Below are positions 5,024 through 26,600 of a stretch of 33,770 nucleotides of DNA, in pieces. Origin of the DNA: Actinomycetes bacterium (GTDB lineage Bacteria; Actinomycetota; Acidimicrobiia; Acidimicrobiales; Acidimicrobiaceae); assembly GCA_021806545.1 (NCBI GenBank), contig JAJZXI010000008.1, forward strand, positions 4,105 through 37,874, given 5' to 3'. Numbering within the stretch: the first letter of the stretch is position 1; each line of letters opens with the position of its first letter. Below the pieces are notes generated by a model. The model was not told where the DNA came from and made no database searches. It saw only the letters and a list, made by a program, of their open reading frames with translations. The position numbers and the translations under genes were made by a program.

Positions 5024-5350
5024 TTATGCCGCCGAATCAGAGCCCTTCGCCGAACCCGACGACGGTGGGGTCACCGAAGGAGATGACGACGTGCTAGTAT
5101 CTGCGGCGACTGGTGCCGTGGTCTCCGAACTAGCGGCACCAGGACTCGTCGATGACGCGGCCGCCGACGAACCGCCACGCGAATCTGTCTTGTAGAACCC
5201 CGAACCCTTGAACACGATCCCAATATTACCAAATACCTTGCGAAGTTCACCTCCGCATCCATCGCAGGTTGTCAACGGGTCATCGTAGAATGACTGTACA
5301 ACCTCAACGTGTTTGCCGCACTGTTTACAGGCGTACTCGTACGTCGGCAT
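5024..5350 (-). CDS. fmdB: FmdB-family zinc-ribbon protein with low-complexity tail
   Basis: The first 50 residues are a classic FmdB zinc ribbon: MPTYEYACKQCG, then TTCDGCG, giving two CxxC pairs that would bind one zinc, followed by the family's LRKVFGNIGIVFKGSGFYKTD segment. The remaining half is a Ser/Thr/Ala/Pro-rich, probably disordered tail, longer than in minimal FmdB proteins. Family members are small putative regulatory proteins of unresolved function. The start is the ATG at 5350 (108 residues); a GTG one codon earlier lies too close to the GGGAGG ribosome-binding sequence. A CIRCE operator lies 33 bases upstream, between a possible -10 and the start codon, which predicts repression by HrcA and heat-shock induction. 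It is divergent from galU. Confidence 0.88.
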   Translation of the reverse strand: MPTYEYACKQCGKHVEVVQSFYDDPLTTCDGCGGELRKVFGNIGIVFKGSGFYKTDSRGGSSAAASSTSPGAASSETTAPVAADTSTSSSPSVTPPSSGSAKGSDSAA

Positions 5351-5382
5351 CACACCTCCCGTTTCGACTTCATCTCAATCAG

Positions 5383-5409
5383 TTAGCACTCCAGCTGTTA
5401 GACTGCTAA
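5383..5409. promoter_or_regulatory. CIRCE element (HrcA operator) between fmdB and galU
   Basis: TTAGCACTC, nine bases, then GACTGCTAA. The family consensus is TTAGCACTC-N9-GAGTGCTAA, so 17 of 18 arm positions match; the only change is at 5403. It lies just downstream of a plausible minus-strand -10 and 33 bases ahead of the fmdB ATG, the usual geometry for HrcA repression. For galU it would be upstream of the promoter. A second, near-perfect copy precedes groES in this window, which supports HrcA being present in the organism. Confidence 0.85.
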
Positions 5410-5413
5410 CCCC

Positions 5414-5419
5414 AGTGTA
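5414..5419 (-). promoter_or_regulatory. Possible -10 of fmdB
   Basis: TACACT on the minus strand, ending five bases before the CIRCE element, so an initiating polymerase and HrcA would compete. No good -35 is visible at the expected distance. The call rests mostly on position. Confidence 0.3.
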
Positions 5420-5450
5420 ACCGGCACGTGTCGCAGGTGACCCCGCATGA

Positions 5451-5456
5451 TAGAAT
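5451..5456 (+). promoter_or_regulatory. Possible -10 of the galU operon
   Basis: TAGAAT lies 26 bases before the galU start codon, implying a leader of about 20 bases that includes the ribosome-binding site. The -35 at the expected distance is poor, which is common in actinobacterial promoters. Confidence 0.35.
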
Positions 5457-5481
5457 GGGCCGGGCAACGAAGGAGTACTGC

Positions 5482-6366
5482 ATGTCGCAAATCACAAAGG
5501 TGGTCATTCCCGCCGCAGGCCTAGGTACACGGTTCTTGCCGGCCACCAAGGCCCAGCCCAAGGAGATGCTCCCCGTCGTCGACAAGCCAGCGATCCAGTA
5601 CGTTATCGAAGAGGCGATCCGTAACGACCTGACCAATATCTTGGTCGTCACCGGGCGCGGCAAACGCTCCATCGAAGACCACTTCGACCAGTCCTTTGAG
5701 CTTGAACAACTGCTGACCGAGTCAGGGAGATCCACGGAGCTTGAGGTCGTTCGCTCTATTGCTCGGCTCGGCAATATCCACTACATCCGCCAAGGCCGTC
5801 CTCTCGGGCTCGGCCACGCGGTTCTCGCTGCAAAAGCCCATGTCGGCAACGACCCATTCGTCACCATGCTTGCGGATGATATCATGTCACAAGACTCGGA
5901 TCTGCTCGCCAGGATGCTGCAACTGCATCACCGTACTGGCGCGAATGTGCTCTCTCTCATGGAGGTGCCGCGCGAACAGATTCGCCTCTATGGCTGCGCC
6001 GAGATCGTCCAGGAGGCCGACGGGACGACGCGGGTCGTCTCGGTCGTCGAGAAGCCAGATCCAAGTGATGCGCCGTCGACGCTAGCGATCACGGGAAGGT
6101 ATCTGTTCACTCCGCAGATCTTCGATGCCATTGAGACCACACCGTCTGGCAAGAACGGTGAGTTCCAGCTCACCGATGCCATCGAGCAGCTCAGTCGCAC
6201 CCAGCCGGTTCTCGGCGTGGTCTTCCAACATGGTCGCTACGACATCGGCGACAAACTGGAGTACCTGAGGGCAGTCGTAGAGATGGCACTCCTTCGCGAA
6301 GACATTGGTCCAGCCTTTGCCGCCGACCTGCGAGCAATCATGGCTCGGGAGTTTGAGGCATCATGA
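5482..6366 (+). CDS. galU: UTP-glucose-1-phosphate uridylyltransferase
   Basis: Makes UDP-glucose from UTP and glucose 1-phosphate, feeding polysaccharide and cell-envelope glycoside synthesis in the cytoplasm. The 294-residue protein starts with the nucleotidyltransferase signature AAGLGTRFLPATKAQPKEML and has the family segments PFVTMLADDI (metal-binding region) and VVSVVEKP. The C-terminal segment QHGRYDIGDKLEYLRA is typical of bacterial GalU rather than RfbA-type enzymes. The frame is open from 5428, but ATG 5482 has an AAGGAG ribosome-binding sequence six bases upstream and begins at the usual MSQITKVVIPAAG. It overlaps moeA by ATGA. The order galU-moeA is conserved in actinobacteria such as Mycobacterium. 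Confidence 0.95.
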   Translation: MSQITKVVIPAAGLGTRFLPATKAQPKEMLPVVDKPAIQYVIEEAIRNDLTNILVVTGRGKRSIEDHFDQSFELEQLLTESGRSTELEVVRSIARLGNIHYIRQGRPLGLGHAVLAAKAHVGNDPFVTMLADDIMSQDSDLLARMLQLHHRTGANVLSLMEVPREQIRLYGCAEIVQEADGTTRVVSVVEKPDPSDAPSTLAITGRYLFTPQIFDAIETTPSGKNGEFQLTDAIEQLSRTQPVLGVVFQHGRYDIGDKLEYLRAVVEMALLREDIGPAFAADLRAIMAREFEAS

Positions 6367-24584: not shown

Positions 24585-26527
<1,943 letters not shown>

Positions 26528-26573: not shown

Positions 26574-26600
26574 CTAGCACTCTAGTACCTTGAGTGCTAA
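26574..26600. promoter_or_regulatory. CIRCE element of groES-groEL
   Basis: CTAGCACTC, nine bases, GAGTGCTAA: only the first base differs from the TTAGCACTC-N9-GAGTGCTAA consensus. It lies in the 5' leader or promoter of groES, the standard place for HrcA repression. Confidence 0.95.

What the first reader, a model, noticed from the sequence alone, without database searches (positions are those of the whole stretch)
5383..5409. Second CIRCE element in front of an FmdB gene
A 17/18 match to the HrcA operator lies outside the groESL locus, positioned as a repressor site for fmdB and back to back with galU. HrcA regulons are usually restricted to chaperone genes. This links FmdB zinc-ribbon proteins, whose role is unclear, to heat-shock or misfolded-protein stress.
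Basis: partly seen in the sequence, partly recalled or inferred. Interest (0 to 1): 0.6.

Follow-up and report, generated by a model that had tools for sequence, protein, structure and literature searches.

The report
HrcA heat-shock operator before fmdB/ruc
A genuine heat-shock repressor site sits in front of a small zinc-binding protein gene; the same wiring is already demonstrated in Mycobacterium tuberculosis, where the protein is a chaperone, and it is conserved across many actinobacteria, so the finding is real but largely known.

Summary
A CIRCE element (17 of 18 bases) lies at 5383-5409, 32 bases upstream of the fmdB start codon (5350, minus strand). It is one of three CIRCE sites in the 2.4 Mb genome; the others precede groES-groEL and a second groEL. 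hrcA is present, next to dnaJ. The site is conserved in all seven genomes of the genus, in 32 of 34 fmdB loci drawn from the order without reference to CIRCE (0 of 532 control pieces), and in at least 120 further loci, nearly all Actinomycetota. It follows fmdB whether or not galU is a neighbour, so fmdB is the target. The biology is established in M. tuberculosis: Rv0991c (Ruc), same family with the same four cysteines, is directly repressed by HrcA, induced by heat, and is an oxidation-activated chaperone (PMC7448276). The regulon here nearly matches the one reported there. What is added is how widespread the link is in the phylum, and a recurrent altered half-site at fmdB. No expression or binding data exist for this organism. 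Verdict: real, a new member of a known kind, modest interest.

The parts
5383..5409 (-). CIRCE (HrcA operator), read toward fmdB: TTAGCAGTC-TAACAGCTG-GAGTGCTAA; one mismatch, G at position 7 of the promoter-proximal half
5414..5419 (-). putative fmdB -10 box TACACT (TTACAAT/TTACACT/TTAGAAT in congeners); places the start of transcription inside CIRCE
   Evidence: alignment of 7 congeners; inferred, no transcript data
5024..5350 (-). fmdB/ruc, 108 aa: zinc ribbon with C8, C11, C29, C32 plus a Ser/Thr/Ala-rich low-complexity tail
5451..5456 (+). putative galU -10 box TAGAAT, invariant in 7 of 7 congeners, about 41 bp beyond CIRCE
   Evidence: inferred
5482..6366 (+). galU, divergent neighbour, probably not the operator's target
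26574..26600 (-). CIRCE in front of groES-groEL (same regulon)
26234..26527 (-). groES
   Evidence: PF00166
24585..26234 (-). groEL
   Evidence: PF00118

Best explanation
The element is an HrcA operator that overlaps the transcription start of fmdB, the counterpart of M. tuberculosis ruc (Rv0991c). In unstressed cells HrcA bound to CIRCE blocks fmdB transcription together with groES-groEL and groEL2. On heat or misfolding stress HrcA loses activity, the regulon is derepressed, and FmdB/Ruc is made as a small chaperone whose zinc ribbon can respond to oxidation and whose disordered tail helps hold unfolded proteins. Shown here: the site, its placement, hrcA in the genome, and conservation. Shown elsewhere in M. 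tuberculosis: HrcA repression, heat induction and redox chaperone activity. Inferred: that the same holds in this organism.
For: 17/18 match, no chance hits. Only three CIRCE sites in the genome, the other two at chaperonin genes. hrcA present, E=6e-35, followed by dnaJ. Site conserved in 7/7 genomes of the genus and in 32/34 fmdB loci of the order, against 0/532 control pieces. In 140 loci selected only on the fmdB-proximal half-site, the other half is within 2 mismatches in 137, against 13 of 1960 control offsets. In 36 loci with at least 2 kb of upstream DNA and no galU, the site is still there. The protein is 62% identical over 55 aa to a Mycobacterium homolog, and its cysteines sit at exactly the positions mutated in Ruc (8, 11, 29, 32, and the primer names in PMC7448276). 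M. tuberculosis HrcA directly represses ruc and the hsp60/hsp10 genes (PMC7448276; PMC8557902).
Against: No binding, transcript or heat-shock data for this organism. Two of 34 order-level loci (L013, L034) have no recognisable site. The half-site mismatch could weaken HrcA binding. FmdB chaperone activity is tested only for the M. tuberculosis protein.
Confidence: 0.93

Rival explanations
1. The operator serves galU, or both divergent genes, tying UDP-glucose supply to heat stress.
For: The site lies in the shared fmdB-galU intergenic region, and divergent promoters can share one operator.
Against: The galU -10 is about 41 bp away from CIRCE. In 63 of 65 galU-containing loci fmdB and galU are more than 400 bp apart and the site stays at fmdB; in 36 loci with at least 2 kb upstream galU is absent and the site is still there.
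Confidence: 0.08
2. A chance or relic inverted repeat with no current regulatory role.
For: One half-site mismatch; no expression data.
Against: Conservation across genus, order and phylum at similar placement, with spacer sequence free to vary; expected chance frequency about 0.002 per genome.
Confidence: 0.02
3. fmdB is mainly activated by a stress sigma factor (SigH-like), with HrcA a secondary layer.
For: In M. tuberculosis SigH also induces ruc and its site overlaps the HrcA site (PMC7448276; PMC4803200).
Against: The conserved element upstream of CIRCE here looks like a housekeeping -10 box (TTACAAT/TAGAAT), and no SigH-type site was seen by eye; this was not tested systematically.
Confidence: 0.15

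Closest known systems
M. tuberculosis ruc (Rv0991c) and the HrcA regulon
   Same: FmdB/zinc-ribbon protein with cysteines at 8, 11, 29, 32 and a disordered tail; HrcA operator in front; co-regulated with groES-groEL1 and groEL2; galU close by on the other strand in mycobacterial loci.
   Different: In M. tuberculosis ruc is also SigH-induced, is in an operon with rv0990c, and hrcA-dnaJ2 is itself HrcA-controlled; here no CIRCE was found in the held DNA around hrcA, and galU is directly adjacent (about 130 bp between start codons) whereas most galU-containing loci have a gap of 700 bp or more.
CIRCE/HrcA control of groESL
   Same: Same operator sequence, 9-bp spacer, and position in the leader or promoter.
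   Different: Target is a small zinc-ribbon chaperone instead of a chaperonin; promoter-proximal half-site carries a recurrent C-to-G change.
Hsp33 (HslO)
   Same: Analogous role proposed for Ruc: oxidation-activated, zinc-dependent holdase (PMC7448276).
   Different: Unrelated sequence.

Membership tests
CIRCE / HrcA operator | TTAGCACTC-N9-GAGTGCTAA inverted repeat | tested here: met
   17/18
CIRCE / HrcA operator | hrcA in the same genome | tested here: met
   G000:C47, PF01628 E=6e-35
CIRCE / HrcA operator | located in promoter or leader of the target | tested here: met
   32 nt from fmdB ATG, just after a conserved -10-like box
CIRCE / HrcA operator | HrcA binds and represses | not testable with these tools
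   Shown for M. tuberculosis ruc in PMC7448276 and references therein
FmdB / Ruc family | N-terminal zinc ribbon with two CxxC pairs | tested here: met
   TIGR02605 and PF09723 above cut-off; C8, C11, C29, C32
FmdB / Ruc family | variable hydrophilic C-terminal tail | tested here: met
   Ser/Thr/Ala-rich tail of varying length in congeners; disorder itself not computed
FmdB / Ruc family | oxidation-activated holdase activity | not testable with these tools
   Shown only for M. tuberculosis Ruc

The most novel reading that the evidence does not exclude
The HrcA-fmdB/ruc link is an ancestral, phylum-wide part of the actinobacterial chaperonin regulon, kept where galU synteny is lost, and the fmdB operator has a repeatedly used, weakened promoter-proximal half-site that sets a lower derepression threshold than at groESL.
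Probability: 0.4. Interest if true: 0.35.

Novelty: new member of a known kind. Interest (0 to 1): 0.2.

Why it matters
It extends an experimentally established M. tuberculosis circuit to a distant actinobacterial order and shows, from sequence, that HrcA control of the Ruc chaperone is a widespread actinobacterial feature. That supports a proteostasis role for FmdB proteins outside mycobacteria and offers harmless actinobacteria as test systems.

Tried and rejected
No paper held contains HrcA, CIRCE and FmdB together; the link was found under the name Rv0991c. No solved structure resembles the protein by sequence. A sigma-70 consensus scan found no promoter in 5330-5500, so the -10 boxes rest on conservation only. 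Rfam gave only a tRNA. A phylum sample with an exact pattern found 20 of 296 genomes; the pattern is strict (one half-site exact, limited spacing), so this is a lower bound and not a frequency. Chance and galU-target readings were considered and rejected as above.

Full report
Observation. The window carries TTAGCACTC-CAGCTGTTA-GACTGCTAA at 5383-5409, a 17/18 match to CIRCE; the only other window match (1 mismatch) is at 26574-26600 before groES, and 100 shuffles gave none. In the whole genome (2.42 Mb, 161 contigs) there are three sites at up to 3 mismatches: these two and one on contig 61, about 32 nt before a second groEL. hrcA is present on contig 47, followed by dnaJ. No CIRCE with up to 6 mismatches was found in the 3.7 kb held around hrcA.

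Anatomy. fmdB runs on the minus strand from an ATG at 5350 with a GGGAGG ribosome site. Reading toward fmdB the order is TACACT (5419-5414), four bases, CIRCE (5409-5383), 32 nt, ATG. Alignment of seven genomes of the genus shows the TTACAAT/TTACACT/TTAGAAT box and both CIRCE half-sites nearly invariant, while the 9-bp spacer and the leader vary more. In other genera a TAGAAT or TATGAT box abuts or overlaps the start of CIRCE. The transcription start would thus fall inside the operator, the usual place for steric repression (inference). The galU -10-like box (TAGAAT, 5451-5456) is invariant in the seven genomes and lies about 41 bp beyond CIRCE.

Conservation. All six congeners have the site directly upstream of fmdB. 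For fmdB loci taken by protein family alone, 32 of 34 with a recognisable start have a CIRCE-like site within 150 bp, against 0 of 532 control pieces of the same loci. The distal half-site, which was not part of the pattern, is within 2 mismatches in 137 of 140 loci, against 13 of 1960 control offsets (the 140 include loci and the window itself). In 36 of the 120 loci no galU is found despite at least 2 kb of upstream DNA, and in nearly all of those with galU it lies 700 bp or further away. The site follows fmdB.

Known biology. M. tuberculosis Rv0991c (Ruc) is the same family: 62% identity over 55 residues between the window protein and a Mycobacterium homolog, the same cysteine positions 8, 11, 29 and 32, and a hydrophilic tail. 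[quoted passage not shown] that Ruc rises at 45 C and in an hrcA mutant; that SigH also induces it; and that oxidised Ruc prevents protein aggregation and works with Hsp70. PMC8557902 lists the HrcA operons as groEL2, groES-groEL1, rv0991c-rv0990c and hrcA-dnaJ2. That paper does not use the name FmdB, which is why a search under that name finds nothing.

What is left. No phylum-wide description of the HrcA-fmdB link turned up in the papers searched, though most subscription papers are not held. The fmdB operator repeatedly has G at position 7 of the promoter-proximal half: 10 of 32 unbiased loci, 0 of 32 at the symmetric position, 7 of 7 in this genus, while the chaperonin-gene sites listed keep C. 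This may tune repression; relatedness was not corrected for.

Noticed in passing
window 5383-5409: Promoter-proximal half-site of the fmdB CIRCE is often TTAGCAGTC (C-to-G at position 7); seen at fmdB sites in several distant genera and not at the chaperonin-gene sites listed.
   Followed up: partly
L001 versus L204-L207: In the window's genome hrcA-dnaJ has no recognisable CIRCE, whereas a related genus has a 1-2 mismatch CIRCE in front of hrcA-dnaJ, so autoregulation seems to be lost or gained within the family.
   Followed up: partly
L208, L209 (genus g6): FmdB is only 65 aa, nearly lacking the hydrophilic tail, yet has a perfect 18/18 CIRCE; relevant because the tail is thought to matter for chaperone activity.
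   Followed up: no
L113:5944-6213: A Dehalococcoidia (Chloroflexi) MAG has a perfect CIRCE in front of fmdB with non-chaperone neighbours, suggesting the link reaches beyond Actinomycetota or was transferred (or the contig is misbinned).
   Followed up: partly
L013 (G012) and L034 (G044): Two order-level relatives keep fmdB beside galU but have no recognisable CIRCE there, although both genomes have CIRCE elsewhere.
   Followed up: no
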